This document shows, one piece after another, positions 3,609 to 52,633 of a stretch of DNA of 64,000 bases. How positions within the stretch are numbered: the first letter of the stretch is position 1; the number at the start of each line of letters is the position of its first letter. The stretch lies in assembly GCF_030362795.1 (NCBI RefSeq), contig NZ_JAUCBM010000005.1, positions 186,001 through 250,000 on the forward strand, given 5' to 3'. Source of the DNA: Pseudochrobactrum kiredjianiae (GTDB lineage: Bacteria > Pseudomonadota > Alphaproteobacteria > Rhizobiales > Rhizobiaceae). The notes under the pieces are model-generated. The model did no database searches. It saw only the letters and a list, made by a program, of their open reading frames with translations, and was not told the DNA's origin. Position numbers and translations under genes: made by a program.

Positions 3609-3716
3609 CTAGAGCGCCGTGCGCCCTCTTGGGCGCACAAAGATCGCTCTAACACTTTTATATTTACAGCATAATTTTACCTTAAACTGATTCAACTTTA
3701 AGGAATTATGCTGTAG
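3609..3716 (-). repeat. Composite palindromic repeat, family A, copy 1
   Basis: Two hairpins joined by an A/T-rich linker. The first has an AGAGCG/CGCTCT outer arm with GTGCGCCC/GGGCGCAC inside. The second has TACAGCATAATT-type outer arms with CCTTAAA/TTTAAGG inside. It starts 15 bp after the dksA stop codon. The strand given follows my convention that + means the TACAGC hairpin comes first. Confidence 0.85.
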
Positions 3717-11100: not shown

Positions 11101-11940
11101 TTACACCCGGTTTTTTAGTCTCAGTTCTTCCAGCTCCTTAATGCGCGCGGCGGTGTTTTGCTCCGGTTGTCTGGTCATTTCGCGGATAATGCTCTCTGAC
11201 AGCACAAACAGGGCAGCCGATGAGTCCCATGCAGAAGGCACGCCGGTACGTGCGGCCAGCACATGACGTGCAAAGCGCGCAATCGGTGACAGCCACTGAT
11301 CGGTAATCAGCAGAATTTCCACGCCACGGCTTTTTGCCGTTTCAGCCAGATGCAACAGGCTTTCCTGATAGCGACGGATATCAAACACAATCAGCATGTC
11401 TTTCTTGCCCATATCCAGCAATCTGTCACGCCACGCACTTTCCTGACCGGAGATATGGAAGACATGCGGGCGGATGACTGTCATATGCGCGGCCATATAT
11501 TGCGCCACCGGATCGGTAAAACGGCCACCGATAAGATAAATATTACCGCGTGCAGTTGCTAAAGCGCGGACAATATCGCTCAACTGTTTCTCGCTGATAT
11601 GGCGGAAGGTTTCACGGATATTTTCAAGCGTATATTCCAAGGCCGGATAGGTTGTATCCTGCTGAACTTGCTGGCTTTCATTGCGGTTGTGCGGTGATTG
11701 TAATTGTGCTGCAAGCTCTTCCTGAAGCCGTGCTTGGAAATCAGGATAATTCTGAAAACCAAGCCGGTTGATAAAGCGCAAGATTGTCGGTGAGCTGACA
11801 CCGGCTTGCGTGGAAAATTCTGCAACAGTTTTAAGGCCAAGCAATGGATAGTTGGCAATCAGTGTCTGTGCTGCATTGCGCTCGCCCGGTGGCATCGTGT
11901 CAATCCGCTCGGTAATCAGCTCCGCGATACTGTTATTCAT
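11101..11940 (-). CDS. MurR/RpiR-family transcriptional regulator of the adjacent catabolic locus
   Basis: 279 residues. The N-terminal part (about 1-75) is the HTH_6 domain, with KTVAEFSTQAGVSSPTILRFINRLGFQNYPDFQ carrying the recognition helix. The C-terminal part (about 115-270) is a SIS domain with the phosphosugar-isomerase fold (GNIYLIGGRFT, KDMLIVFDIRRY, ILLITDQ). RpiR proteins usually sense a phosphorylated or other small metabolite and repress or activate a neighbouring operon. This gene is divergent from the hydrolase-TRAP-ligase-dehydrogenase genes that follow, and two clean inverted repeats lie in the shared intergenic region. I chose ATG 11940; a TTG at 11994 is in frame but has no ribosome-binding site. 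Confidence 0.88.
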   Translation of the reverse strand: MNNSIAELITERIDTMPPGERNAAQTLIANYPLLGLKTVAEFSTQAGVSSPTILRFINRLGFQNYPDFQARLQEELAAQLQSPHNRNESQQVQQDTTYPALEYTLENIRETFRHISEKQLSDIVRALATARGNIYLIGGRFTDPVAQYMAAHMTVIRPHVFHISGQESAWRDRLLDMGKKDMLIVFDIRRYQESLLHLAETAKSRGVEILLITDQWLSPIARFARHVLAARTGVPSAWDSSAALFVLSESIIREMTRQPEQNTAARIKELEELRLKNRV

Positions 11941-12012
11941 TTCTGTTCCCGTCAGTTTTTGAGTGCTGTTTGTGATTGCGAAGCGTCGTTTCAATCAATT
12001 TAAAAATACTGT

Positions 12013-12041
12013 TTGACAAAAGATAGTAATGCGTATGAGAT
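12013..12041 (+). promoter_or_regulatory. Candidate promoter of the amidohydrolase/TRAP locus
   Basis: A consensus -35 hexamer TTGACA starts at 12013. The -10 is weak (TATGAG-like, 15-17 nt downstream), as expected for a promoter that needs an activator or is held off by a repressor. Confidence 0.35.
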
Positions 12042-12071
12042 GATACACAATAGTGCGAAATTAAAAATAAC

Positions 12072-12108
12072 GTAACATAAGTTACATCTGTAAATGGAAA
12101 TATTTACA
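12072..12108. promoter_or_regulatory. Two adjacent inverted repeats, candidate RpiR operators
   Basis: GTAAC-ATAA-GTTAC occupies 12072-12085 and TGTAAAT-N6-ATTTACA occupies 12089-12108. Both are perfect inverted repeats. They lie between the regulator gene and the amidohydrolase gene, downstream of the candidate -35 and just before the ATG at 12127. Binding there by the RpiR protein is inference. Confidence 0.5.
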
Positions 12109-12126
12109 CGCATGAGGGGAGGCAGA

Positions 12127-12954
12127 ATGGCGGAGCATCGCGATTCTCACGGCAATGATGTGCATACCCGATTTTCTGACACGGACGCTGACATTGATAT
12201 ACCGGCCGCATCGGTTCTCAATGAGCAGGGCGCCAGCCCGTATTTGCTGATCTGCGAGCATGCAACCAATTTTATGCCGGAGAAATTCGCTCGTCTGGGT
12301 TTGTCTGAGGCCGATATTGAGGCTCATATTGCATGGGATCCGGGGGCTGCAGAAGTTGCACGGCGTATGAGTAAGGCGTTGGATGCCACATTGGTTGAGG
12401 CCGGACTTTCGCGTTTGCTGATTGATTGCAACAGGCCGCTTTCTGCGCCGGATCTTATTCCGGAAATCAGTGAATTCACTGTTGTTCCGGGTAATCACAA
12501 TTTGTCTGAGGCCGCGCGGCAGGAGCGCATTGCGCTGTCGCACAAGCCTTTTCATGAGAAAATTGAAGCGGTTATCGAAGCGCGAAAACAGCGCGGGCAG
12601 GAAAGCCGGTTGATAACAATCCATTCCTATACGCCGGTTTATAAAGGCGTGGGGCGGCCATGGGAAATCGGGATCATTTATGATTCTGATGATCGTCTGG
12701 GTGCAAAAATGATTGCCGGATTGCGCAAGGATAGTGAAGAATCAGGCGTCAGTGTCGGTGTGAACCAGCCTTATTCACCCGATGACCGTGTTTACTACAC
12801 GGTGGAGTGTCATGCACGTAAACGTGGCGATCTCTGCGCCATGGTAGAAATTCGGAATAATGAAATTGCTGATGAAGAAGGGCAGGCTCTTTGGGCTGCT
12901 CGTCTGGCGGCAATTTTGCAGGAAATTGAGACTGACTACAGCATAACTCCTTAA
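12127..12954 (+). CDS. N-formylglutamate amidohydrolase-family hydrolase (possible gamma-glutamyl-amide hydrolase)
   Basis: 275 residues. The FGase signatures are visible: LLICEHATNFMPEKF with a metal-binding Glu-His, LLIDCNRPLSAPDLIP, LITIHSYTPVY with a second His, and EIRNNEIADEEG near the C-terminus. Classical members (HutG) release formate from N-formylglutamate in histidine breakdown, but no other hut gene is present here. The surrounding genes point to an amide made by a glutamine-synthetase-like ligase. My inference is that this enzyme cleaves a gamma-glutamyl amide late in that pathway. ATG 12127 was chosen for its strong GGGGAGGC ribosome-binding site; ATGs at 12094 and 12112 lack one, and the first lies inside the operator-like repeat. 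The last five codons and the stop lie inside a family A repeat. Confidence 0.85.
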   Translation: MAEHRDSHGNDVHTRFSDTDADIDIPAASVLNEQGASPYLLICEHATNFMPEKFARLGLSEADIEAHIAWDPGAAEVARRMSKALDATLVEAGLSRLLIDCNRPLSAPDLIPEISEFTVVPGNHNLSEAARQERIALSHKPFHEKIEAVIEARKQRGQESRLITIHSYTPVYKGVGRPWEIGIIYDSDDRLGAKMIAGLRKDSEESGVSVGVNQPYSPDDRVYYTVECHARKRGDLCAMVEIRNNEIADEEGQALWAARLAAILQEIETDYSITP

Positions 12955-13042
12955 ACTTGAATCAATTTAAGATAAAATTATGCTGTAAATATAAAGCGTT
13001 AGAGCGGAATTTGTGCGCCAAAGAGGGCGCACGGCGCTCTAA
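12937..13042 (+). repeat. Composite palindromic repeat, family A, copy 2, supplying a stop codon
   Basis: The TACAGCATAA hairpin comes first, then a linker, then the AGAGCG...CGCTCT hairpin with GTGCGCC / GGCGCAC. The final codons of the amidohydrolase (Tyr-Ser-Ile-Thr-Pro-stop) are read from the first arm of the element. It separates the hydrolase gene from dctQ. Confidence 0.88.
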
Positions 13043-13172
13043 GGAGAAGATAACCTTGATCCCGGCCAGTTGAGGAGCAGGCGGGGTTTCAAGGGAAAGC
13101 GGTAACTGGTGAATACAGGCATAAGAGCCGGAAAAGCGGCCATAACAAGCCTGAAACAACGGGAACAAAAAA

Positions 13173-13733
13173 GTGCCGAAAATACTCAGACTCTTCGTGA
13201 AATATGTCGATGCGCTGAATTATCGGGTCGGTCGCTGCGCGATGTATCTCATCTTTCTTATGGCAGGTTGTCTGCTCTATTCCACCTTTTCACGGGTTGT
13301 TCTTGGTGTGCCGGTGAACTGGGTTCTGGAGATGTCGCAGTTTATTCTGTCTGCTTATTATCTGCTGGGAGGTGCCTATGCGATGCAGCAGGGTGCCCAT
13401 GTGCGGATGGATTTGTTCTATGATCGCTTTACACCGAAAAAGAGGGCGCTGACCGATATTATCACTATTCTCTGCGTGATTTTCTATCTCGGTGTGATGT
13501 TTGCCGGTGGCCTGTCCAGCACGAATTATGCCTATGTTTATAATCAGAAAAATTATACCGCATGGGCGCCGGTACTCTGGCCGATCAAGACGCTGATGAC
13601 GCTCGGTGTTTTTCTGTTGTTGCTGCAATGCCTGTCTAATCTGATCAAGGATTATGCGATCTGGCGCGGCACACCGATCAAACCTGCATCCTATGTTCCT
13701 GATACAGCACCGCAGGAAGGGCAAGCCATATGA
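13173..13733 (+). CDS. TRAP transporter small membrane subunit (DctQ type)
   Basis: 186 residues with four hydrophobic helices (about 23-46, 52-72, 97-119, 136-160). The conserved DctQ pattern is seen: WVLEMSQFILSAYYLLGGAYAMQQGAHVRMDLFYDRF between helices 2 and 3. The subunit pairs with DctM to drive sodium-coupled import of a substrate delivered by the periplasmic DctP protein. The start is GTG at 13173, with CGGGAAC upstream as the ribosome-binding site. The gene overlaps dctM by four bases (ATGA), so translation is coupled. The transporter belongs to the same catabolic locus as the ligase and dehydrogenases downstream. Confidence 0.92.
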   Translation: MPKILRLFVKYVDALNYRVGRCAMYLIFLMAGCLLYSTFSRVVLGVPVNWVLEMSQFILSAYYLLGGAYAMQQGAHVRMDLFYDRFTPKKRALTDIITILCVIFYLGVMFAGGLSSTNYAYVYNQKNYTAWAPVLWPIKTLMTLGVFLLLLQCLSNLIKDYAIWRGTPIKPASYVPDTAPQEGQAI

Positions 13734-15055
13734 GTTCGGAATTTATTACCCTCTTTATGTTTGCCACAATGATGGTGCTGCTGATGACAGGGCAGCGCGT
13801 TTTTGGTGTGATCGGTTTTGTCGGCTCATTGGCAGCACTTCTGCTCTGGGGTAACGGCGCTTTCGAAATGCCGTTCAATGCCACTTTTGCGGTGCTGAAC
13901 TGGTATCCGCTGATTACCGTGCCGTTCTTTGTATTCATGGGCTATATGCTGTCTGAATCCGGAATTGCCAGTAATCTTTACCGTATGTTCCATGTCTGGT
14001 TTGGCGGCATTCGTGGCGGGCTTGCTCTTGGTACCGTCGGTCTGATGGTTATCATCTCCTGTATGAACGGGCTGAGTGTAGCCGGTATGGCAATTGGTGC
14101 GACGGTGGCGCTGCCGGAATTGCTTAAACGTGGCTATAACAAGGTAATGGTCACCGGTGTTATTCAGGCTGGCAGCTCACTGGGTATTCTCATTCCGCCA
14201 AGCGTGGTGCTGGTGCTTTATGCGATGATTGCCCGCCAACCGGTATTGCAATTATGGCTGGCTGGTATCGGGCCGGGCATGTTGATGGCAGCATTATTTG
14301 CCATTTATATTTATGTACGTTGCCGCATCAATCCAGAGCTCGGACCGGCGCTGCCAAAAGAGGAGCTGGATCAGATCACATGGTCTGAAAAAATCTCAAC
14401 ACTGGGTGCCGGTGTACTGCCATTGCTGATTTTTGGCACCATGATGGGGCTGTTTCTGACCGGTGTAACCAGTCTGGTTGAAAGCTCTGTTGTTGGCGCG
14501 TTACTGGCAACGCTGGCGGCCTTGTTTACAGGACGTCTGAGCAAGCAAGTTTGGGAAACCACCACCCGTAATTCGCTGATGATTTCCTGCATGTTCCTCT
14601 GGATCATTCTGGCGGCGCTGTGCTTCTCGTCTGTTTATGACGGATTGGGGGCGGTGAAGGCCATTGAGAAACTTTTGCTTGGCACGTTTGATTTATCACC
14701 ATGGACCATTCTTATCCTGATGTTGTTGTCCTTTGTCGTACTTGGCATGTTTCTGGACGACACAGCGATGCTGGTGATTGTGGCACCGCTTTATATTCCG
14801 CTGGTCAAAAGCCTCGGATTCAATGCGATCTGGTTTGGCATTCTCTACACCATTACCTGTCAGATCGCCTATATCACCCCGCCTTTCGGCTATAACCTGT
14901 TTATGATGCGAGCTATGGCACCGCCGGAAGTGACCCTGCTTGATATTTATAAATCCATTGTTCCGTTCTTTTTCCTGATGGTGCTGACGGTTATCATTTT
15001 GATGATCTTCCCGCAGATCGCTCTGTGGCTGCCCAACTGGTATTCGGGGCGATGA
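13730..15055 (+). CDS. TRAP transporter large membrane subunit (DctM type)
   Basis: 441 residues, almost entirely hydrophobic with about twelve helices. DctM motifs include FMGYMLSESGIASNLYRMF, GTVGLMVIISCMNGLSVAGMAIGA, QAGSSLGILIPPSVVLVLYAMI and FLDDTAMLVIVAPLYIPLVKSLGF. This is the sodium- and substrate-translocating subunit. Its ATG overlaps the stop codon of dctQ. The length is normal for the family and there is no break in the frame. Confidence 0.95.
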   Translation: MSSEFITLFMFATMMVLLMTGQRVFGVIGFVGSLAALLLWGNGAFEMPFNATFAVLNWYPLITVPFFVFMGYMLSESGIASNLYRMFHVWFGGIRGGLALGTVGLMVIISCMNGLSVAGMAIGATVALPELLKRGYNKVMVTGVIQAGSSLGILIPPSVVLVLYAMIARQPVLQLWLAGIGPGMLMAALFAIYIYVRCRINPELGPALPKEELDQITWSEKISTLGAGVLPLLIFGTMMGLFLTGVTSLVESSVVGALLATLAALFTGRLSKQVWETTTRNSLMISCMFLWIILAALCFSSVYDGLGAVKAIEKLLLGTFDLSPWTILILMLLSFVVLGMFLDDTAMLVIVAPLYIPLVKSLGFNAIWFGILYTITCQIAYITPPFGYNLFMMRAMAPPEVTLLDIYKSIVPFFFLMVLTVIILMIFPQIALWLPNWYSGR

Positions 15056-15237
15056 TAAACGCAGAATAAATACGCAGTGCATACGCAGTTCATAAAAAGA
15101 CAAAAGTCAAAACTGCGCTCAAGGGAACCAAAACTGAATGTGAAGGTGTTTGTTATTGCAGTTTCGAATTGAGAATATTGGCGGACAACCGTTACCAGTT
15201 TTCCTGAAACTGCTCCATTGCGACGGGAGACACGCAA

Positions 15238-16305
15238 ATGAGTGACAGCAAATTTCTGAATAAACGTGAATTTCTTAAAAAATCTGCTTTGACCACAGTC
15301 GGGGCAGTGGGTGCGACAGCACTTGCCACACCTTATGTGAAAGCACAGAGCCCGATTAAATGGCGTTTGCAGACCTATGCAGGGCCAGCTCTGGCTGAGC
15401 ATGTTATCAAGCCTTCAATTGATGCTTTCAACAAAGCCGCCAATGGCGAAATGGTGATCGAGCTTTTCACAGCCGATCAGCTGGTGCCGCAGGGTGAGCT
15501 TTTCCGTGCGGTGCAATCGGGCACGATTGATGCGGCACAATCTGATGATGACTCCATGGCATCGCCGGTGGATGTGTCGGTGTTCGGGGCGTATTTCCCG
15601 TTTGCTTCCCGCTACAGCCTTGATGTGCCGGTATTGTTCAATCATTACGGGCTCAATGAGATCTGGGAAGAGGCCTATAAGGAAATTCCGGGCGTGACAT
15701 GGCTCAGTGCAGGTTCATGGGATCCGTGTAATTTTGCCACCACAAAACCAATCCGCTCGCTGGAAGATCTTAAAGGTCTGCGCGTCTTTACTTTCCCGAC
15801 CGGAGGTCAGTTCCTCACCCGATTTGGGGTGGTGCCGGTGACGCTGCCTTGGGAAGATATTGAGGTGGCTATTCAGACCGGTGAGCTGGACGGGGTGTGC
15901 TGGTCGGGTGCGACCGAGGTTTATACCGTTGGTTGGGCTGATATTAATAAATACTATCTCACTAACAATATCAGTGGTGCATGGGCGGGTTCCTATTTTG
16001 CCAATACGGAAAAATGGGATGCAGTGCCGCCTCATCTGCAGCAATTGTTCAAACTCAGCATGGATAGCTCTCATTATTACCGCCAGCATTGGTATTGGTG
16101 GGGTGAAGCCCATTACCGTACCACCGGCGGTAAACTTGAACTGACAACCATTCCGGAAACGGAATGGAGCAAAGTTGAAGATGAGGCGATGAAGTTCTGG
16201 GACGAAGTGGCCGCGAAAAGCGAACGCAGTGCCAAAGTGGTGGCAATTCTGAAAAACTATCAGGATACCATGCGTAAGGCCGGAGCGCCGTATCGCTACT
16301 CTTAA
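15238..16305 (+). CDS. TRAP transporter substrate-binding protein (DctP family) lacking the carboxylate-binding Arg
   Basis: 355 residues. The leader reads NKREFLKKSALTT followed by a hydrophobic stretch and a cut near VKA-Q37; it resembles a twin-arginine signal in which Arg-Arg is replaced by Lys-Arg. The mature protein has the DctP fold signatures: FKLF-like FTADQLVPQGELFRAVQSG, then LKGLRVFTFPTGGQFL and VAIQTGELDGVCW. In most DctP proteins the seventh residue of the LKGLK-x-R element is an Arg that grips the carboxylate of the ligand; here that position is Phe184. The substrate is therefore probably not a simple carboxylate, consistent with an amine or amino alcohol. The ribosome-binding site is ACGGGAG. 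It follows dctM after 182 bp. Confidence 0.9.
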   Translation: MSDSKFLNKREFLKKSALTTVGAVGATALATPYVKAQSPIKWRLQTYAGPALAEHVIKPSIDAFNKAANGEMVIELFTADQLVPQGELFRAVQSGTIDAAQSDDDSMASPVDVSVFGAYFPFASRYSLDVPVLFNHYGLNEIWEEAYKEIPGVTWLSAGSWDPCNFATTKPIRSLEDLKGLRVFTFPTGGQFLTRFGVVPVTLPWEDIEVAIQTGELDGVCWSGATEVYTVGWADINKYYLTNNISGAWAGSYFANTEKWDAVPPHLQQLFKLSMDSSHYYRQHWYWWGEAHYRTTGGKLELTTIPETEWSKVEDEAMKFWDEVAAKSERSAKVVAILKNYQDTMRKAGAPYRYS

Positions 16306-16338
16306 GATATCATAGCAGTTCACGTTCTGAAGTTCTTT

Positions 16339-16392
16339 TTTATGCATTATCCTTCGCCAAAAGGCTCACGCGCTTTTGCCGGAAATGCTCTC
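16339..16392 (-). repeat. RIME-like palindrome, family B, single hairpin
   Basis: Arms ATGCATTATCC and GGAAATGCTCTC enclose AAAAG/CTTTT-type inner arms. The same sequence type is found at 30176 and 60797. It starts 34 bp after the dctP stop codon. Confidence 0.7.
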
Positions 16393-16405
16393 AATTTACA
16401 AAAAC

Positions 16406-16430
16406 TGTCGCCGCCGGAGGGGCGGCGACA
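16406..16430. terminator. GC-rich hairpin between dctP and the ligase gene (attenuator or mRNA 3' stabiliser)
   Basis: A perfect 10-bp stem TGTCGCCGCC / GGCGGCGACA with a 5-nt loop. No T-run follows, so it is unlikely to be a full terminator. It probably sets the ratio of binding-protein mRNA to downstream mRNA. Confidence 0.5.
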
Positions 16431-16470
16431 CTCCAATCTAATAAAATGCCGATGAAGCACGGAGTTGTAA

Positions 16471-17841
16471 ATGACCGGAAACCTGACTTTTGATGCGCTG
16501 AAACAAGCGGTCGCTCATGATGAAATTGATACCGTGCTCGTCTGCCTGACAGATATGCAGGGGCGGTTGGTCGGCAAGCGTTTCTATGCGCCGTTTTTTG
16601 TTGAAACCGCTTTTGATGAAACGCATGGCTGCAGCTATTTGCTGGCCGATGATATCGATATGGAGCCGGTTGCCGGATATGAGGCTGCAAGCTGGGATAA
16701 GGGCTATGGTGATTTTGTCATCAAGCCGGATTTGTCCACGCTGCGGCTTGCGCCATGGCTTGAGAAAACCGCGCTGGTTCTCTGCGATGTGCTGGATCAC
16801 CAAGATCATACAGATCTGGCCCACTCGCCGCGTGCGATGTTGAAGAAGCAGCTGGCGCGGTTGAAAGAGCGAGGCTATCGCGCTTATTTCGCCTCGGAGC
16901 TTGAGTTTTATCTCTTTGACGAGACCTATAAATCCGCACGCTCTAAGTACTGGAAACATATAGACACATCGTCTCCGTATATTCAGGACTATATGATCCA
17001 TCTGACCAGCAAGGAAGAATCCGTGTTGCGCGCGATGCGTAATCATCTGGCCAAAGCCGGTATTCCGATTGAGAATTCCAAAGGCGAGGCCGGTTCCGGT
17101 CAGCAGGAACTCAATGTGCGCTATGCGGAAGGGCTGGATATGGCCGACCGCCATGTCATTATGAAAAATGCAATGAAGGAAATTGCCGAGGCACAAGGCA
17201 AGTGCATCACCTTCATGGCGAAATATGACTATTGCAAAGCCGGCAGTTCCAGCCATGTGCATAATTCGCTGTGGAGTCTGGATGGCAGTAAGTCGCTGTT
17301 TTACGATCCGGATGCGCCATACACTATGTCACCTTTGATGCGCTCATGGGTGGCCGGACAGTTGAAATATGCCGCTGATTACACCTATTTCCTCGCGCCT
17401 TACGTCAATTCTTACAAGCGGTTTCAGGCGGGTACTTTCGCGCCGACCAAGATCAGCTGGAGTCAGGATAATCGCACAGCAGGGTTCCGTCTTTGCGGTG
17501 AGGGTACCAAGGGTATTCGTATTGAATGTCGTATCGGCGGGGCTGATCTCAACCCTTATCTGGCTTTTGCCGCGCTCATTGCTGCGGGCTTGCGCGGTAT
17601 TGATGAAAAGCTGGAACTGGAAGAACCGTTTGTCGGTGATGCCTATGCAGCGGTGAAGCTGAAGGAAATTCCTTACACCCTGCGCGATGCCATCGTGACC
17701 CTCAAGAATTCCGAATTTCTGAAAGAGGCTTTGGGCGAAAAAGTTCTCAATCATTATGTTCATACAGCTGATTGGGAGCAGGTTGAATATGACCGCCGTG
17801 TCACCGACTGGGAGCTACATCGTGGTTTCGAGCGCTACTAA
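16471..17841 (+). CDS. Glutamine synthetase-family ligase, gamma-glutamyl-amide synthetase type
   Basis: 456 residues. Family residues are visible: the metal ligands in SELEFYLFD (Glu143, Glu145), GEAGSGQQELN (Glu206, Glu213), the His of SSSHVHNSLW (His262/264), the ATP-loop NSYKRFQAGTFAPTKISWS, NRTAGFRLCG, and the catalytic Arg region IECRIGGADLNPYLA. The short N-terminal beta-grasp domain and lack of an adenylylation Tyr loop are typical of GlnA-like enzymes such as PuuA, GlnT and IpuC, which join glutamate to an amine instead of ammonia. The gene is 27 bp upstream of an aldehyde dehydrogenase gene and follows a TRAP importer, so a gamma-glutamylation route for an imported amine is the best guess. 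The ribosome-binding site GGAG lies 6-7 nt before the ATG. Confidence 0.88.
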   Translation: MTGNLTFDALKQAVAHDEIDTVLVCLTDMQGRLVGKRFYAPFFVETAFDETHGCSYLLADDIDMEPVAGYEAASWDKGYGDFVIKPDLSTLRLAPWLEKTALVLCDVLDHQDHTDLAHSPRAMLKKQLARLKERGYRAYFASELEFYLFDETYKSARSKYWKHIDTSSPYIQDYMIHLTSKEESVLRAMRNHLAKAGIPIENSKGEAGSGQQELNVRYAEGLDMADRHVIMKNAMKEIAEAQGKCITFMAKYDYCKAGSSSHVHNSLWSLDGSKSLFYDPDAPYTMSPLMRSWVAGQLKYAADYTYFLAPYVNSYKRFQAGTFAPTKISWSQDNRTAGFRLCGEGTKGIRIECRIGGADLNPYLAFAALIAAGLRGIDEKLELEEPFVGDAYAAVKLKEIPYTLRDAIVTLKNSEFLKEALGEKVLNHYVHTADWEQVEYDRRVTDWELHRGFERY

Positions 17842-17868
17842 TCTTAGAGTTATAAAAGGAATGAAGCC

Positions 17869-19254
17869 ATGAGCGATGTGGCGAGACTGATTTCTCCGAT
17901 TGACGGTTCCGTTTATGCGGAACGTGCTTGTCTTGATCTGGCTCAAGCACAGGCTGTTGTCTCAAATGCGCGGCAGGCGCAGGGCGGCTGGGCAGCTTTA
18001 ACAATTGCTGAGCGTGCAAGTTATTGCTCTGCGGCACTTGCTGCTCTGGCCGCAATGAACGACGAACTGGTGCCGGAGATTGCCTGGCAGATGGGGCGGC
18101 CGGTACGCTATGGCGGAGAAAATGGCGGCGTGCAGGAGCGCGGCCAATATATGATCAATATTGCGGAAGAGGCGCTCAAGCCGCTGGTGCCTGAAGAGAA
18201 AGACGGGTTCCGCCGCTATGTGAAGCATGTACCGCTTGGTGTGGTGATGGTGATTGCGCCGTGGAATTATCCGTATCTCACCGCAGTAAACACGATTATT
18301 CCGGCGCTGATGGCCGGTAATGTGGTGATCCTTAAACACGCCACACAGACACTGCTTGCCGGTGAGCGCTTTGCCAAAGCATTTGAGATTGCCGGTTTGC
18401 CGAAAGGCGTCTTCAGTAATGTTATGCTTGGTCATGCCACAACGGAAGCGCTGCTGGCTTCCGGTACCGTTGATCATGTGAATTTCACCGGCTCTGTTGG
18501 TGGTGGCCGTGCGATTGAAAAAGCTGCTGCCGGTACTTTCATGACTGTGGGACTGGAACTTGGCGGTAAAGATCCGGCCTATGTGTTGCCCGATGTTAAT
18601 GTTGAGCATGCCGTTGCCAATCTCGTGGATGGTGCCTTTTTCAATTCCGGTCAGTGCTGCTGTGGTATTGAGCGCATCTATGTTCATGAGGCGGTTTATG
18701 ACAAATTTGTCGATGGTTTTGTTGAGCTGACCAGCCAATATGTCGTTGGTAATCCGTTGGATGCCTCCTCAACGCTGGGGCCGATGGCACATGCGCGTTT
18801 CGCTGATTTGATCCGCGAGCAGAAGGCGGAAGCGCTGCGTAAAGGCGCGAAAGCTCATATCAATATGAGCGTTGAGAATGACCGTGCCGGTTCACCTTAT
18901 CTGGCGCCGGAAGTGCTGACCAATGTCGATCATCAGATGAGTGTGATGCGCGAAGAAAGCTTTGGTCCGATTGTCGGCATTATGAAGGTGCGCAGCGATG
19001 AAGAAGCTGTGGCGCTGATGAATGACAGCAATTTCGGCCTCACTGCCTCGCTTTGGACACCGGATACAGATCGCGCAGCCAATATTGCCGATCAGATTGA
19101 AACCGGCACAGTGTTTATGAACCGCTGTGATTATCTTGATCCGGGACTGGTCTGGACCGGTGTTAAAGATACGGGCAAGGGCGCTTCGCTCTCTTCCATT
19201 GGTTACGGCAATCTCACCCGTCCGAAATCCTATCACCTGCGTGAAAAAATCTGA
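17869..19254 (+). CDS. NAD(P)-dependent aldehyde dehydrogenase
   Basis: 461 residues. The cofactor-binding stretch APWNYPYLTAVNTIIPALMAGN, the TGSVGGGR loop, the general-base Glu in LELGGKDPAYV and the catalytic Cys in FNSGQCCCGIERIYV are all present. The C-terminal EESFGPIVGIMKV and the NFGLTASLWT motif complete the superfamily pattern. Three adjacent Cys surround the nucleophile. It is the third gene of the ligase group, 27 bp after it and 33 bp before the alcohol dehydrogenase. In a gamma-glutamyl pathway it would oxidise a gamma-glutamyl aminoaldehyde to the acid, as PuuC or IpuH does. That role is inference; the enzyme class is certain. Confidence 0.92.
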   Translation: MSDVARLISPIDGSVYAERACLDLAQAQAVVSNARQAQGGWAALTIAERASYCSAALAALAAMNDELVPEIAWQMGRPVRYGGENGGVQERGQYMINIAEEALKPLVPEEKDGFRRYVKHVPLGVVMVIAPWNYPYLTAVNTIIPALMAGNVVILKHATQTLLAGERFAKAFEIAGLPKGVFSNVMLGHATTEALLASGTVDHVNFTGSVGGGRAIEKAAAGTFMTVGLELGGKDPAYVLPDVNVEHAVANLVDGAFFNSGQCCCGIERIYVHEAVYDKFVDGFVELTSQYVVGNPLDASSTLGPMAHARFADLIREQKAEALRKGAKAHINMSVENDRAGSPYLAPEVLTNVDHQMSVMREESFGPIVGIMKVRSDEEAVALMNDSNFGLTASLWTPDTDRAANIADQIETGTVFMNRCDYLDPGLVWTGVKDTGKGASLSSIGYGNLTRPKSYHLREKI

Positions 19255-19287
19255 TCGCTTCTGAATTTTGATGTGAAAGTAAGTGTA

Positions 19288-20460
19288 ATGACAACATTGA
19301 CCTCAAAATGGAATTTCCCGACCACTGTGCTGTTTGGCGCTGGTCGTATTAAAGAACTGCCTGCAGTGCTGAAAGCTGCAGGTATCAGCAATCCGCTGTT
19401 TGTCACCGATCCGGGTTTGGCGAAGCTGCCGGTTGTGGCATCCACTCTGGCAGTGCTAGATCAGGCGGGTGTGAAATACGGGACTTTTACGGAAGTGAAG
19501 CCCAATCCGGTGGAGAGCAATCTGACTGCCGGTGTTAAGGTCTATAATGACGGTCATCATGATGGTGTAATTGCCTTTGGCGGCGGCTCGGCACTTGATC
19601 TTGGCAAGCTGATTGCATTTCAGGCCAAACAGACACGTCCGGTGTGGGATTTTGAAGATATTGGTGACTGGTGGACACGTGCAGATAGCGCAGTGATTGC
19701 ACCGGTGATTGCCGTGCCGACAACAGCGGGTACGGGCTCGGAAGTCGGACGTGCCGGTGTGCTGACCAATGAAGCCACCCACACGAAGAAGGTGATTTTC
19801 CATCCGAAAATGCTGCCGGTGACCGTGATTGCTGATCCGGAATTATCAGTCGGTATGCCGCCATTTATTACAGCGGGCACCGGCCTCGATGCGTTGGCAC
19901 ATTGTTTAGAGGCCTATTGTGCACCCGGTTATCACCCGATGGCGGATGGCATCGCATTGGAAGGTATGCGTTTGGTGTTTGAAAACCTGCCGAAGGCCTA
20001 TGCAAACGGGCAGGACATTACTGCGCGTGCCAATATGATGGCGGCAGCGGCGATGGGCGCAACAGCCTTCCAGAAGGGGCTTGGTGCCATCCATTCGCTG
20101 TCGCATCCGATCGGTGCGCTTTATGATACGCATCATGGTATGACCAATGCGGTGTTTATGCCTTATGTGTTGCACCATAACCGTGCGGCGATTGAAAGCC
20201 GTATCGGGCGGGTGGCTGACTATCTTGGTATTGCAGGCGGATTTGACGGCTTTGTTGCGGCAGTAATGAAACTGCGCAAAGAGCTGAATGTGCCGGACAG
20301 TCTGCCGGAATTTATTAAAGGTCTGGAAATGGATGACGCCCAAAAGGATATGATCGCGGAAATGGCGATTGTCGATCCGACAGCTGGCGGTAATCCGGTT
20401 GAACTGACAAAAGAAGGCGCATTAAAGCTGCTTAATCAGGCACTTAAAGGCACAGCCTGA
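19288..20460 (+). CDS. Iron-type (group III) alcohol dehydrogenase
   Basis: 390 residues. The N-terminal domain has LFGAGRIKELP and the nucleotide-binding GGGSALDLGKLIAF, then the family pattern VPTTAGTGSEV. The metal ligands are in GLDALAHCLEAY (Asp and His of DxxxH) and in GAIHSLSHPIGALYDTHHGMTNA (two further His). Such enzymes interconvert alcohols and aldehydes with NAD(P). Here it would produce the aldehyde consumed by the gene just upstream. The frame is open from a GTG at 19273, but ATG 19288 is the likelier start. It is the last gene of the locus, before a hairpin terminator. Confidence 0.92.
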   Translation: MTTLTSKWNFPTTVLFGAGRIKELPAVLKAAGISNPLFVTDPGLAKLPVVASTLAVLDQAGVKYGTFTEVKPNPVESNLTAGVKVYNDGHHDGVIAFGGGSALDLGKLIAFQAKQTRPVWDFEDIGDWWTRADSAVIAPVIAVPTTAGTGSEVGRAGVLTNEATHTKKVIFHPKMLPVTVIADPELSVGMPPFITAGTGLDALAHCLEAYCAPGYHPMADGIALEGMRLVFENLPKAYANGQDITARANMMAAAAMGATAFQKGLGAIHSLSHPIGALYDTHHGMTNAVFMPYVLHHNRAAIESRIGRVADYLGIAGGFDGFVAAVMKLRKELNVPDSLPEFIKGLEMDDAQKDMIAEMAIVDPTAGGNPVELTKEGALKLLNQALKGTA

Positions 20461-20463
20461 TTA

Positions 20464-20508
20464 TATTATGAGAAAGGGCAAAACATGGTGTTTTGCCCTT
20501 ATATAATC
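20464..20508. terminator. Bidirectional terminator after the catabolic locus
   Basis: A perfect 12-bp stem AAGGGCAAAACA / TGTTTTGCCCTT with loop TGG (20474-20500), flanked by A/T-rich arms. It lies between convergent genes. Confidence 0.75.
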
Positions 20509-22511: not shown

Positions 22512-24860
22512 TCAGGCGGCTGCGCGCAGTTGGCGGGCGGCCTCTACCAGATTAACAAGTGCCGGTTTGGTTTCTGCCCAGCCGCGGGTTTTGAGGCCGC
22601 AATCCGGATTGACCCAAATCTGCTGTGCTTTGAGCTTTTGTGCTGCTTTCTCGATCAGGTCGACCATTTCTTCCACATCAGGAATCCGCGGCGAGTGAAT
22701 GTCATAGACACCGGGACCGATCTCATTCGGATAGCCCTGTTCAGAGAAGGCACTCAGCAGTTCCATCTTAGAGCGGGAGGTTTCAATCGAAATCACATCG
22801 GCATCCAGTGCTGCAATTGCAGGCATAATGTCGTTGAATTCCGAATAGCACATATGCGTATGAATCTGGGTTTCGTCCTTCACGCCGGCGGCGCTGAGGC
22901 GGAAGGCTGTCACAGCCCAATCCAGATACGGTGCCCAATCGCTCTTGCGTAGCGGCAGACCTTCACGAAGTGCTGGTTCATCAATCTGGATAACGCTGAT
23001 GCCTGCGGCTTCCAAATCAGTCACTTCATCACGCAATGCCAGTGCAATCTGTCGGCAGACTTCCGAGCGTGGCAGATCATCACGTACAAATGACCATTGC
23101 AGCATGGTTACGGGACCGGTGAGCATGCCTTTCATTGGCTTGTCAGTCTTGCTCTGAGCGAATTTTGCCCATTCGACAGTCATGGCAACAGGGCGGGAAA
23201 CATCCCCGTAAATCACCGGAGGGCGTACATAACGCGAGCCGTAACTCTGTACCCAGCCGGATTGGGTGAAGGCATACCCGTCAAGCTGCTCACCAAAATA
23301 TTGCACCATGTCATTGCGTTCAAATTCGCCGTGAACCAGAACGTCAATACCGATTTCTTCCTGCCAGCGGATAGCTGTTTCAGTTTCCTGCTCAAGGAAG
23401 GTCTGATAATCGGCTGCAGCTAACTCACCTTTGGTGAAGCGCGAACGAGCCTGACGAACCTCGGCAGTCTGTGGGAAGGAACCGATTGTTGTTGTCGGAT
23501 AAAGCGGCAGTTTCAGATGATCTGCCTGCAATTTGACGCGTGCATCAAATGCGCTGTTACGATGGGATTGTGCATCGGTAATCGCAGCAACACGTGCCTG
23601 AACGGCCTTATTATTGACCTTGGTTGATGCTTTGCGGGCGGCAATGGCTTCATCCGAGGCTGTCAAGGCTGCCTCAGTTGTTTCAGGCTTATCGCCAAGA
23701 TCGGTGCCGAGTACTGCCAGCTCTTCCAGTTTCTGCACAGCAAAAGCCAGTGACTGGCGGATTTCCGCATCAAGTTTCTTTTCCGATTCCAGATCAATCG
23801 GCACATGAAGCAGCGAGCAAGATGGTGCGATCTGCACAGCATCGGCCCCACGCTTGGCAATAACCGATTTTACACGCTCAGTAATCGCACGCAGGTCAGC
23901 ACGCCAGATATTGCGGCCATCAATCACGCCGAGTGAAAGCACCAGATTAGGACGGGCGATCTTAACCGCAGCGTCAAGATCCTGCGGTGCGCGTACCAGA
24001 TCAAGATGCAGACCTGCAACTGGCAAGGTAATGGCGGTCAGAAGATTGTCGCCATAAGAACCGAAATAATTGGCCAGCAGGATTTTCAGTTCCGGCAGTT
24101 TCTCAGCAAAGAACTCGAAGGCTGTGCGGATAGCAGCATGGTCATCGGCATTGAGATCAAGGCTCAGAACCGGCTCGTCAATCTGCACCCAGTCGGCACC
24201 GGCTGCATGGAGCTGCGCGAGAATTTCCGTGTAGACGAGCAACAGGGCTTCAAGTGTCTTGTTCAGATCAAATGCGCTGTCATTGGATTTGCCGAGTTTC
24301 AGGAACGAAACAGGGCCGAGCAGAACAGGGCGGGTATGAATGCCGAGTTCTTTGGCTTCATTAAATTCGTTAAGCGCTTTGTTTGTTGTCAGGGTGAATT
24401 TCTGACCCGCGCTGAATTCCGGCACCATATAGTGGTAATTGGTGTCGAACCATTTGGTCATTTCCAGAGCAGGCACGCCATTACTGGTAGTTTCGTCGCC
24501 GTGATCGCGGCCGCAACCGCAGCTTGATGCTTCAGTCTGCGCACCGGTTTTACCGCCGCGAGCCAGAGCGAAATAAGTGTCCAGATCAACTTTGCCACCT
24601 TTCCAGCCATAAAGAGCCGGAATGACGCCGAGAGTAACACTCAGGTCGAGCACATGGTCATAGAGGGAGAAGTCATTGGAAGGAATGCTTTTGATGCCCT
24701 TTTCCTGCTGCAGCTTCCAATTGGCAGCGCGCAAGGATTTGGCAGTTGCAAGCAACTCGTTTTGTGTGGTTTTGCCTGCCCAATAGGATTCAAGAGCGAA
24801 TTTGAGTTCACGCTGTTTTCCGATACGCGGAAAACCGAGATTGGCTGTAGTAACGGTCAT
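22512..24860 (-). CDS. metE: Cobalamin-independent methionine synthase MetE
   Basis: 782 residues, full length for the family. It transfers the methyl group of 5-methyltetrahydropteroyl-triglutamate to homocysteine. The N-terminal domain begins TTANLGFPRIGKQRELKFALE with the folate-binding LGFPR motif. The C-terminal barrel holds the zinc ligands in HTHMCYSEFND (His, Cys) and NPDCGLKTR (Cys). An unusual feature is a loop after about residue 112 with CGCGRDHGDE, a Cys/His/Asp-rich insertion before ALEMTKWFDTNYHY that E. coli MetE lacks. The gene is controlled by a cobalamin riboswitch directly upstream, so it should be off when B12 is plentiful and the B12-dependent MetH can work. Confidence 0.97.
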   Translation of the reverse strand: MTVTTANLGFPRIGKQRELKFALESYWAGKTTQNELLATAKSLRAANWKLQQEKGIKSIPSNDFSLYDHVLDLSVTLGVIPALYGWKGGKVDLDTYFALARGGKTGAQTEASSCGCGRDHGDETTSNGVPALEMTKWFDTNYHYMVPEFSAGQKFTLTTNKALNEFNEAKELGIHTRPVLLGPVSFLKLGKSNDSAFDLNKTLEALLLVYTEILAQLHAAGADWVQIDEPVLSLDLNADDHAAIRTAFEFFAEKLPELKILLANYFGSYGDNLLTAITLPVAGLHLDLVRAPQDLDAAVKIARPNLVLSLGVIDGRNIWRADLRAITERVKSVIAKRGADAVQIAPSCSLLHVPIDLESEKKLDAEIRQSLAFAVQKLEELAVLGTDLGDKPETTEAALTASDEAIAARKASTKVNNKAVQARVAAITDAQSHRNSAFDARVKLQADHLKLPLYPTTTIGSFPQTAEVRQARSRFTKGELAAADYQTFLEQETETAIRWQEEIGIDVLVHGEFERNDMVQYFGEQLDGYAFTQSGWVQSYGSRYVRPPVIYGDVSRPVAMTVEWAKFAQSKTDKPMKGMLTGPVTMLQWSFVRDDLPRSEVCRQIALALRDEVTDLEAAGISVIQIDEPALREGLPLRKSDWAPYLDWAVTAFRLSAAGVKDETQIHTHMCYSEFNDIMPAIAALDADVISIETSRSKMELLSAFSEQGYPNEIGPGVYDIHSPRIPDVEEMVDLIEKAAQKLKAQQIWVNPDCGLKTRGWAETKPALVNLVEAARQLRAAA

Positions 24861-24927
24861 TTCAATACCCCGACGAATGTTGACATTAAGGAACTGTGCG
24901 CTGTCCTGTTCTGTCTTTCTAATGTGA

Positions 24928-25219
24928 TACCGGGCAGGTCTCCTGGCTTGCGGGTCATCATTTGCTTCCGGTCTTCCCGAAATGTTGCCATTTCAGTGAC
25001 CGCCTTCGAGCTGATGCTGTGCGCATGTGCTGTCGGGCAAATATCCGGTGAAGGTTTTCACAGGACATGCGGAAGAAAACTCGCCGCTTACAGTTGCGGG
25101 GGCAGCTGCGGATTTGACTATGCCCGCTATCAGTTGCCTGAAATTACTGAGCATTGGCCGCACCGCATTCCCTCTTAGCTTTAAAACTCTTGCGCCCACC
25201 GGTTGGAATGGCAGGGCAA
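24928..25219 (-). ncRNA. Cobalamin (B12) riboswitch upstream of metE
   Basis: Read on the minus strand, the leader holds AAGAGGGAATGCGGTG (P3/L3 region), then the invariant core GCTGCCCCCGCAACTGTAAG (complement of 25087-25106), and at the 3' end the B12 box AAGCCAGGAGACCTGCC (complement of 24933-24949). The order and spacing match the AdoCbl riboswitch. It ends about 70 nt before the metE start, which leaves room for an expression platform. It explains the long 5' region of metE. The rest of the interval to 25611 is A/T-rich and holds the divergent metE and gdhA promoters, with no gene. Confidence 0.93.
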
Positions 25220-25611
25220 CAATCAAAAGAACCACGATGTGCAGAATGTGCCTCAGGATTTATCGGATGTCAATAATGATATAAAGATTTGTTTATATGG
25301 ATATATGGCTATAAATTTATACTAAATGCTTGGTGGTGTGCAAAAATCATATCTGCGGGAATGGTGTTTATGAGTGATTTTTTGCGAATCAAGCGGATTG
25401 CTGGGTGCAAACAGCATTTGGGGCAGAAATATTGTCCTAATATGCAATCACGCGCCAAGGTATGTCGTATAATTCATAGATAAATGGTCTAACCTTATGC
25501 TGAATAGTCATAATGTCAGCATGACTGTCATATTTTTATTGCGTGAAGCGTCATCAAAAGTTATTCAAAATGTAATTTTTCATGCTGCAATCGCAAGAAA
25601 GGGAAATTTCG

Positions 25612-43234: not shown

Positions 43235-43343
43235 ATAGAGCGCCGTGCGCCCTTTTGGGTGCTACACAAGGTCGCTCTAGCACTTTATATTTACAGCATA
43301 ATTTTACCTTGAACTGATTCAAGTTTAAGGAATTATGCTGTAG
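43235..43343 (-). repeat. Composite palindromic repeat, family A, copy 5
   Basis: The AGAGCG hairpin comes first (inner arm decayed to GGGTGCTACAC), then linker, then TACAGCATAATT...AATTATGCTGTA. The first arm starts about 10 bp after the recA stop. The rest of the 387-bp gap to alaS holds the alaS promoter and no gene. Confidence 0.88.
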
Positions 43344-48098: not shown

Positions 48099-48157
48099 TA
48101 CAGCATAAAGTGTTAGAGCGACCTTTGTGCGCCCAGCAGGGCGCACGGCGCTCTAGC
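48099..48157 (+). repeat. Composite palindromic repeat, family A, copy 6 (central palindrome missing), supplying the gpt stop codon
   Basis: TACAGCATAAAGTGTTAGAGCG joins the beginning of hairpin 1 directly to the linker, so most of hairpin 1 is deleted. Hairpin 2 (GTGCGCCC / GGGCGCAC) is intact. The TAG stop codon of gpt is read from its CTAGAGCG end. Confidence 0.85.
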
Positions 48158-48846: not shown

Positions 48847-48953
48847 TACAGCATAATTCCTTAAACTTGAATCAGTTTAAGGTGAAATTATGCTGTAAAT
48901 ATAAAGTTCTAGAGCGACCTTTATGCGCCCAAGAGGGCGCATGGCGCTCTAGC
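48847..48953 (+). repeat. Composite palindromic repeat, family A, copy 7
   Basis: Complete element. Hairpin 2 has ATGCGCCC / GGGCGCAT in place of GTGCGCCC / GGGCGCAC, a compensatory double change. It lies in the gpt-usp gap, not next to a stop codon. Confidence 0.92.
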
Positions 48954-52530: not shown

Positions 52531-52633
52531 GACATAATTCCTTAAACTTGGAGAAGTTTAAGGTAAAACTATGCCCTAACTTTAAAGTGTTAGAGCGAGT
52601 TTTGTGTGCCAAGTCTGGCACACGGCGCTCTAG
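52527..52633 (+). repeat. Composite palindromic repeat, family A, copy 8, supplying the HU stop codon
   Basis: CTAGGACATAATTCC begins hairpin 1, and the HU stop codon TAG is part of it. The linker is AACTTTAAAGTGTT. Hairpin 2 is of the second subtype (GTGTGCCA / TGGCACAC). Confidence 0.92.

What the first reader, a model, noticed from the sequence alone, without database searches (positions are those of the whole stretch)
12127..20460. Candidate gamma-glutamyl amino-alcohol catabolic pathway with its own TRAP importer
One locus combines an RpiR regulator, an N-formylglutamate amidohydrolase-like enzyme, DctQMP, a glutamine-synthetase-like ligase, an aldehyde dehydrogenase and an iron alcohol dehydrogenase. 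The logic fits import of an amino alcohol, gamma-glutamylation of its amine, oxidation of the alcohol to aldehyde and then acid, and hydrolysis of the gamma-glutamyl amide. The Puu (putrescine) and Ipu (isopropylamine) pathways use the same order of chemistry, and an ethanolamine version has, as I recall, been reported in another proteobacterium. Using an FGase-family hydrolase for the last step would be distinctive.
Basis: inference. Interest (0 to 1): 0.78.

Follow-up and report, generated by a model that had tools for sequence, protein, structure and literature searches.

The report
Known ethanolamine import and breakdown operon
This is an ordinary copy, in a bacterium related to Brucella, of a published type of gene cluster that imports ethanolamine, tags it with glutamate, oxidises it and cuts it into glycine and glutamate.

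Summary
In detail: window 11101-20460 holds a divergent RpiR regulator and seven co-directional genes (FGase, DctQ, DctM, DctP, GS-like ligase, ALDH, Fe-ADH). The pathway logic is also right, but it is in print. The annotated genes and their order match the Phaeobacter MED193 ethanolamine operon, whose EtoX binds ethanolamine (Kd about 8 uM). The window's binding protein matches ethanolamine-bound Csal_0678 (4UAB) at E 6e-152. It lacks the carboxylate-binding Arg of typical TRAP proteins and keeps the probable ligand-platform Glu. The ligase matches Csal_0679 (5DM3) at E 5e-167 and misses the four NCBIfam ligase cutoffs listed. EutB is absent. Ethanolamine is therefore the probable substrate. 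An FGase-type last enzyme was already proposed. Small additions: a better FGase start (12127), a candidate operator (12072-12085) in 22 of 22 close loci, and a hairpin repeat inside the operon. A side finding is more interesting: 16 of 16 fetched genomes with a divergent ligase beside this importer have no FGase gene, and 13 carry a class-I GATase gene there instead. The window itself is already known, low interest.

The parts
11101..11994 (-). RpiR-family regulator (HTH_6 + SIS)
   Evidence: Pfam above cutoff; an RpiR gene also heads the MED193 operon by locus tag
12012..12046 (+). conserved promoter-like block: TTTGAC at 12012, then GTATGAGATGATAC 12033-12046, whose TATGAG could be a -10
   Evidence: aligned in relatives; the consensus scanner lists no promoter here; inference
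12072..12085 (.). candidate RpiR operator GTAACATAAGTTAC (inverted repeat GTAAC-4-GTTAC)
   Evidence: exact upstream of FGase in 22 of 22 loci whose RpiR is 71% or more identical; 1-2 mismatches in 13 of 13 loci with RpiR 57-69%, 2-5 mismatches in 13 of 13 with RpiR 33-44%; binding not tested
12127..12954 (+). FGase-family hydrolase, proposed gamma-glutamylglycine amidohydrolase (GGAH); longer ORF starts at 12094
   Evidence: PF05013 E 1e-40; far below the HutG cutoff; nearest solved structure 2ODF
12955..13042 (.). hairpin-forming intergenic repeat inserted between FGase and dctQ (not part of the pathway)
   Evidence: about 88 bp, 41 matches in the genome; no copy found in this gap in 49 of 49 loci with both genes
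13173..13733 (+). DctQ, TRAP small permease (EtoV-like)
   Evidence: PF04290
13730..15055 (+). DctM, TRAP large permease (EtoW-like)
   Evidence: PF06808
15238..16305 (+). DctP, ethanolamine-binding protein (EtoX-like)
   Evidence: 4UAB/4XF5 sequence E 6e-152; F184 in place of the conserved Arg, E227 at the probable ligand-platform Glu
16471..17841 (+). GS-like ligase, proposed ethanolamine gamma-glutamylase (ETAGA)
   Evidence: 5DM3 (Csal_0679) E 5e-167; 11ZS E 2e-265; misses the four NCBIfam ligase cutoffs listed
17869..19254 (+). aldehyde dehydrogenase, proposed to oxidise the gamma-glutamyl aldehyde to gamma-glutamylglycine (GAADDH)
   Evidence: PF00171; no cutoff reached in the 25 of 45 NCBIfam rows shown
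19273..20460 (+). iron alcohol dehydrogenase, proposed gamma-glutamylethanolamide dehydrogenase (GETADH)
   Evidence: PF00465; no cutoff reached in 15 of 15 NCBIfam rows
20474..20500 (.). perfect 12-bp inverted repeat, probable terminator between Fe-ADH and the convergent Dabb gene
   Evidence: function inferred

Best explanation
The locus is the copy of the published Eto ethanolamine operon in what is by similarity a Pseudochrobactrum genome. Shown here: gene content, order, families and close similarity to Csal_0678 and Csal_0679. Inferred from relatives: the DctP protein binds ethanolamine in the periplasm and DctQM carries it in. The GS-like ligase uses ATP and glutamate to make gamma-glutamylethanolamide. 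The Fe-ADH oxidises the alcohol to the aldehyde, the ALDH makes gamma-glutamylglycine, and the FGase cuts this to glycine and glutamate, so the glutamate is recovered. RpiR controls the operon, probably through the inverted repeat at 12072-12085.
Against: No activity has been measured for any protein of this window, and no MED193 sequence was compared here: that match is by annotated function and locus-tag order. In the passages I read, the hydrolase and dehydrogenase steps of the relatives rest on induction and gene context, not on purified enzymes. MED193 EtoX also rises on phosphate starvation. In one search cell-wall amidases follow the poly-gamma-glutamate hydrolases within about 1 Z, so the fold does not single out gamma-glutamyl chemistry. 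The ligase passes the broad Pfam Gln-synt_C cutoff and keeps Asp at the aligned Asp50 position. 4XF5 is, from recall, the alaninol complex of the same binding protein, so close amino alcohols may also be taken up.
Confidence: 0.93

Rival explanations
1. Same chemistry, but the main substrate is another small amino alcohol (alaninol, 3-aminopropanol, serinol) giving another gamma-glutamyl amino acid.
For: The binding pocket may accept close analogues: 4XF5 is a second entry of the same protein, recalled as the alaninol complex.
Against: Binding protein and ligase are closest to the adjacent pair Csal_0678/0679, and the MED193 operon is induced by phosphoethanolamine.
Confidence: 0.05
2. A putrescine or other polyamine gamma-glutamylation (Puu-like) pathway.
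For: GS-like ligase plus ALDH, same order of chemistry.
Against: The ligase scores 198 bits against a cutoff of 650 for gamma-glutamylputrescine synthetase and the ALDH 198 against 850 for PuuC; the importer's binding protein is of the ethanolamine clade.
Confidence: 0.01
3. A true glutamine synthetase and a histidine-pathway N-formylglutamate hydrolase placed by chance beside a TRAP importer.
For: Family names alone; PDB 11ZS, the closest structure, is deposited as glutamine synthetase; Asp50 position still Asp.
Against: GlnA and GS-III cutoffs missed; HutG score 19.8 against 278.75; the genome has another gene that looks like canonical GlnA, though I did not score it against NCBIfam; order conserved in 39 of 80 loci.
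Confidence: 0.01

Closest known systems
Eto operon of Phaeobacter sp. MED193, MED193_10021-10056 (PMC10132767)
   Same: Same annotated genes in the same locus-tag order, RpiR to gamma-glutamylethanolamide dehydrogenase; same proposed steps (passages).
   Different: Another genus. Orientations and sequences of MED193 were not seen here. The window carries a hairpin repeat between FGase and dctQ.
Csal_0678/Csal_0679 of Chromohalobacter salexigens (PDB 4UAB, 5DM3)
   Same: Binding protein and ligase match over nearly full length; PF05013 hydrolase listed for that pathway.
   Different: Ligase 47-50% identical to the chains of 5DM3.
Streptomyces coelicolor GlnA4 pathway, SCO1611-1615 (PMC6529630)
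   Same: Gamma-glutamylethanolamide route with an FGase-family last enzyme proposed (passages).
   Different: Regulator EpuRI; no TRAP importer was named in the passages read.
PDB 11ZS, Brucella melitensis 'glutamine synthetase'
   Same: 78% identical to the window ligase.
   Different: Deposited as glutamine synthetase; by similarity it belongs with the ethanolamine ligases, which is not tested.

Membership tests
Eto ethanolamine gamma-glutamylation operon | RpiR / hydrolase / DctQMP / GS-like / ALDH / Fe-ADH in this order | tested here: met
   published order
Eto ethanolamine gamma-glutamylation operon | binding protein of the EtoX/Csal_0678 kind, no carboxylate-binding Arg, ligand-platform Glu kept | tested here: met
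   the match of E227 to Csal Glu220 is inferred from the alignment (chain index 217; it is the only Glu of the chain between 210 and 230)
Eto ethanolamine gamma-glutamylation operon | ligase of the Csal_0679 kind | tested here: met
Eto ethanolamine gamma-glutamylation operon | ethanolamine binding and the four enzyme activities | not testable with these tools
   needs purified proteins
Glutamine synthetase (GlnA, type III) | score above NCBIfam equivalog cutoff | tested here: not met
   249 of 429 and 232 of 470 bits; the broad Pfam domain cutoff is met
Puu putrescine pathway | ligase above the GGputSyn cutoff, ALDH above the PuuC cutoff | tested here: not met
   198 of 650 and 198 of 850 bits
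HutG N-formylglutamate deformylase | score above TIGR02017 cutoff | tested here: not met
   19.8 of 278.75 bits
Eut (ethanolamine ammonia-lyase) route | EutB present in the genome | tested here: not met
   PF06751 in 0 of 1 (own) genome; found in 1 of 14 controls, E. coli

The most novel reading that the evidence does not exclude
Bacteria with this ethanolamine importer built the same four-step route with two different toolkits: an FGase with the Csal_0679-type ligase (this window), or, mainly in Halomonas and Billgrantia, a class-I GATase (PuuD-type fold) with a ligase only 31-33% identical. Sixteen of 16 genomes with the divergent ligase beside the importer lack any FGase-family gene; 13 of 16 have the GATase gene just after the Fe-ADH; 4 of 4 sampled FGase-operon genomes lack that GATase at E 1e-15, and the own genome has only weak matches. 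Against it: 3 of 16 (L059, L071, L080) have neither hydrolase, so at least one further solution must exist or the reading is incomplete. I raised the odds from 0.45 to 0.6 because.
Probability: 0.6. Interest if true: 0.35.

Novelty: already known. Interest (0 to 1): 0.18.

Why it matters
The ethanolamine operon known from marine and halophilic bacteria is present in 7 of 7 genomes of this genus searched and, patchily, in its order: 89 of 297 sampled genomes have the binding protein. The GS-like genes of these operons should therefore not be named glutamine synthetase on similarity alone. The one step that still deserves a direct assay is the last one: the FGase here, and the class-I GATase that seems to replace it elsewhere.

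Tried and rejected
HutG, GlnA, GS-III, PuuA, PuuC: rejected by curated cutoffs. Eut route: EutB absent.

Does the candidate operator also sit by the ligase in genomes where the ligase lies away from the importer? Not seen: the exact palindrome is absent from the eight ligase loci listed (L088-L095, about 1.5 kb of flank each), so a shared regulon was not shown. In the own genome the pattern GTAACNNNNGTTAC occurs at 3 places against 33 hits for the reversed control; the other two places were not examined. The inverted-repeat tool could not report it (minimum length 12, arms are 5), and the promoter scan lists nothing there and no excess over shuffles (6 found, mean 9.6). The conservation of 12033-12046 may be only that of a promoter.

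GS active site: the column aligned with Asp50 is Asp in 6 of the 12 ligase rows, the window included, Glu in L025, and Lys, Ala or Asn in the five divergent ones; the model is weak there (pLDDT under 50 at residues 54-66). That residue does not speak against ammonia in the window protein; only the flap residue and the family scores do.

Distribution against a uniform picture: the 12 same-family genomes listed besides the own one have no match, and 5 of 6 same-family genomes of other genera have none. L069 (RpiR-FGase-TRAP) has only a 32% ligase in its genome.

The Vetting et al. 2015 paper is not held; what I say of it comes from passages of PMC10132767, PMC4646407, PMC12410723 and PMC5812351. 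Paper searches: (none found). Only passages were seen of PMC10132767, PMC6529630, PMC9397018, PMC5812351, PMC12410723 and PMC4646407; no paper was read whole. I did not search the literature for the FGase/GATase swap.

Full report
WHAT IS THERE. By similarity the window lies in a Pseudochrobactrum genome: the four nearest binding proteins are 97% identical and come from two records titled Pseudochrobactrum, a Brucellaceae MAG, and a record titled Bacillus subtilis that is probably mislabelled. Eight genes form the locus: RpiR on the minus strand (11101-11994), then FGase, dctQ, dctM, dctP, GS-like ligase, ALDH and Fe-ADH up to 20460. dctQ and dctM overlap by 4 bases; ligase-ALDH and ALDH-ADH gaps are 27 and 18 bases; larger gaps lie before dctQ (218), dctP (182) and the ligase (165). 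A perfect 12-bp inverted repeat at 20474-20500 separates the last gene from a convergent Dabb-domain gene.

HOW IT WORKS. An operon with the same annotated genes in the same locus-tag order is published as the ethanolamine pathway of Phaeobacter MED193 (passages). Its EtoX binds ethanolamine (Kd 7.9 +/- 1.9 uM) and none of the four analogues named; five of its proteins (GGAH, EtoX, ETAGA, GAADDH, GETADH) rise on phosphoethanolamine, EtoX also on phosphate starvation. I compared no MED193 sequence. The window's DctP hits 4UAB/4XF5 at 509 bits and the next solved TRAP protein at 63 bits. The Arg that holds carboxylates in typical TRAP proteins aligns with Phe184; across 81 sequences, query included, this column is 62 Phe and 19 Tyr, never Arg. 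Fischer et al. discuss exactly this loss in Csal_0678 (passage). Csal_0678 holds ethanolamine with Glu220 (passage); the only Glu near there in the aligned chain matches window Glu227, present in 81 of 81.

COMPARATIVE GENOMICS. Of 80 loci fetched by the binding protein, 39 have all eight genes in this order (tblastn at E 1e-15; some loci are cut by contig ends). Four (L028, L033, L035, L038) have RpiR-FGase-DctQMP without the ligase block, and 4 of 4 of their genomes hold a ligase 71-73% identical outside that stretch. Twelve loci show only DctQMP, seven of them titled Parvibaculum; of these, L032, L041 and L050 were checked and 3 of 3 genomes have a ligase 60-61% identical. In the order sample 89 of 297 genomes have the binding protein at E 1e-80 or better, but the 12 same-family genomes listed besides the own one do not. 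Among 21 relatives 9 do, including 7 of 7 of the genus counting the own genome.

A SECOND TOOLKIT. Sixteen loci, 11 of them titled Halomonas or Billgrantia, have a ligase only 31-33% identical with an ALDH and an Fe-ADH. In 13 of the 16 a class-I GATase gene follows the Fe-ADH directly. None of the 16 genomes has any FGase-family match, with a positive control in 1 of 14 control genomes, Caulobacter. The GATase is absent at E 1e-15 from 4 of 4 sampled genomes with the FGase operon (L005, L026, L065, L054), and the own genome has only weak matches (best E 1e-8, 34% identity over part). Three of the 16 (L059, L071, L080) have neither. This looks like a replacement of both first and last enzyme around one importer. 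Activities are untested.

REGULATION. Between rpiR and FGase, the 14-bp inverted repeat GTAACATAAGTTAC is exact in the window and in 22 of 22 loci whose RpiR is at least 71% identical; among the loci held the only other exact match to the pattern was L086, the window's own stretch fetched again. With RpiR 57-69% identical, 13 of 13 loci have a best match with 1-2 mismatches in the ten arm positions; with RpiR 33-44%, 13 of 13 have 2-5. I take it as the likely RpiR operator; no binding was tested, and close relatedness explains part of the conservation.

VERDICT. The window adds a new host genus and small details; the FGase/GATase swap in relatives is the more interesting lead.

Noticed in passing
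L055:15387-16103 and 12 further loci (L061, L063, L064, L067, L068, L072, L075-L078, L081, L083): Class-I GATase gene directly after the Fe-ADH in ethanolamine-importer loci with a divergent ligase; 16 of 16 such genomes lack any FGase-family gene, 13 of 16 have the GATase, 3 have neither. A possible replacement hydrolase.
   Followed up: partly
window 12955-13042; further copies near 3610-3695, 43236-43324, 48105-48155 (partial), 48865-48951, 52546-52632: An 88-bp hairpin-forming intergenic repeat (fold z -6.15 for the whole 12955-13172 gap) with 41 matches in the own genome (40 of 154 candidates scored). It has 14 to 40 or more matches in four near genomes (L004, L005, L007, L008), 0 in that of L010 and 1 weak in that of L014. 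In the FGase-dctQ gap it was found only here: the gap is roughly 70-100 bases shorter in the six nearest relatives, measured between BLAST hit ends.
   Followed up: partly
PDB 11ZS compared with window 16471-17841: A structure released in 2026 as Brucella melitensis glutamine synthetase is 78% identical to this ethanolamine-type ligase, so its name may be wrong.
   Followed up: no
window 24916-25231 (minus) and 22512-24860 (minus): A cobalamin riboswitch (84.4 bits) stands upstream of the B12-independent methionine synthase gene metE, a familiar arrangement.
   Followed up: no
L004: A record titled Bacillus subtilis strain SK6B4 carries a locus 93-97% identical to the window over 11 of the 12 proteins compared (Dabb 73%); probably a mislabelled or contaminated assembly.
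   Followed up: no
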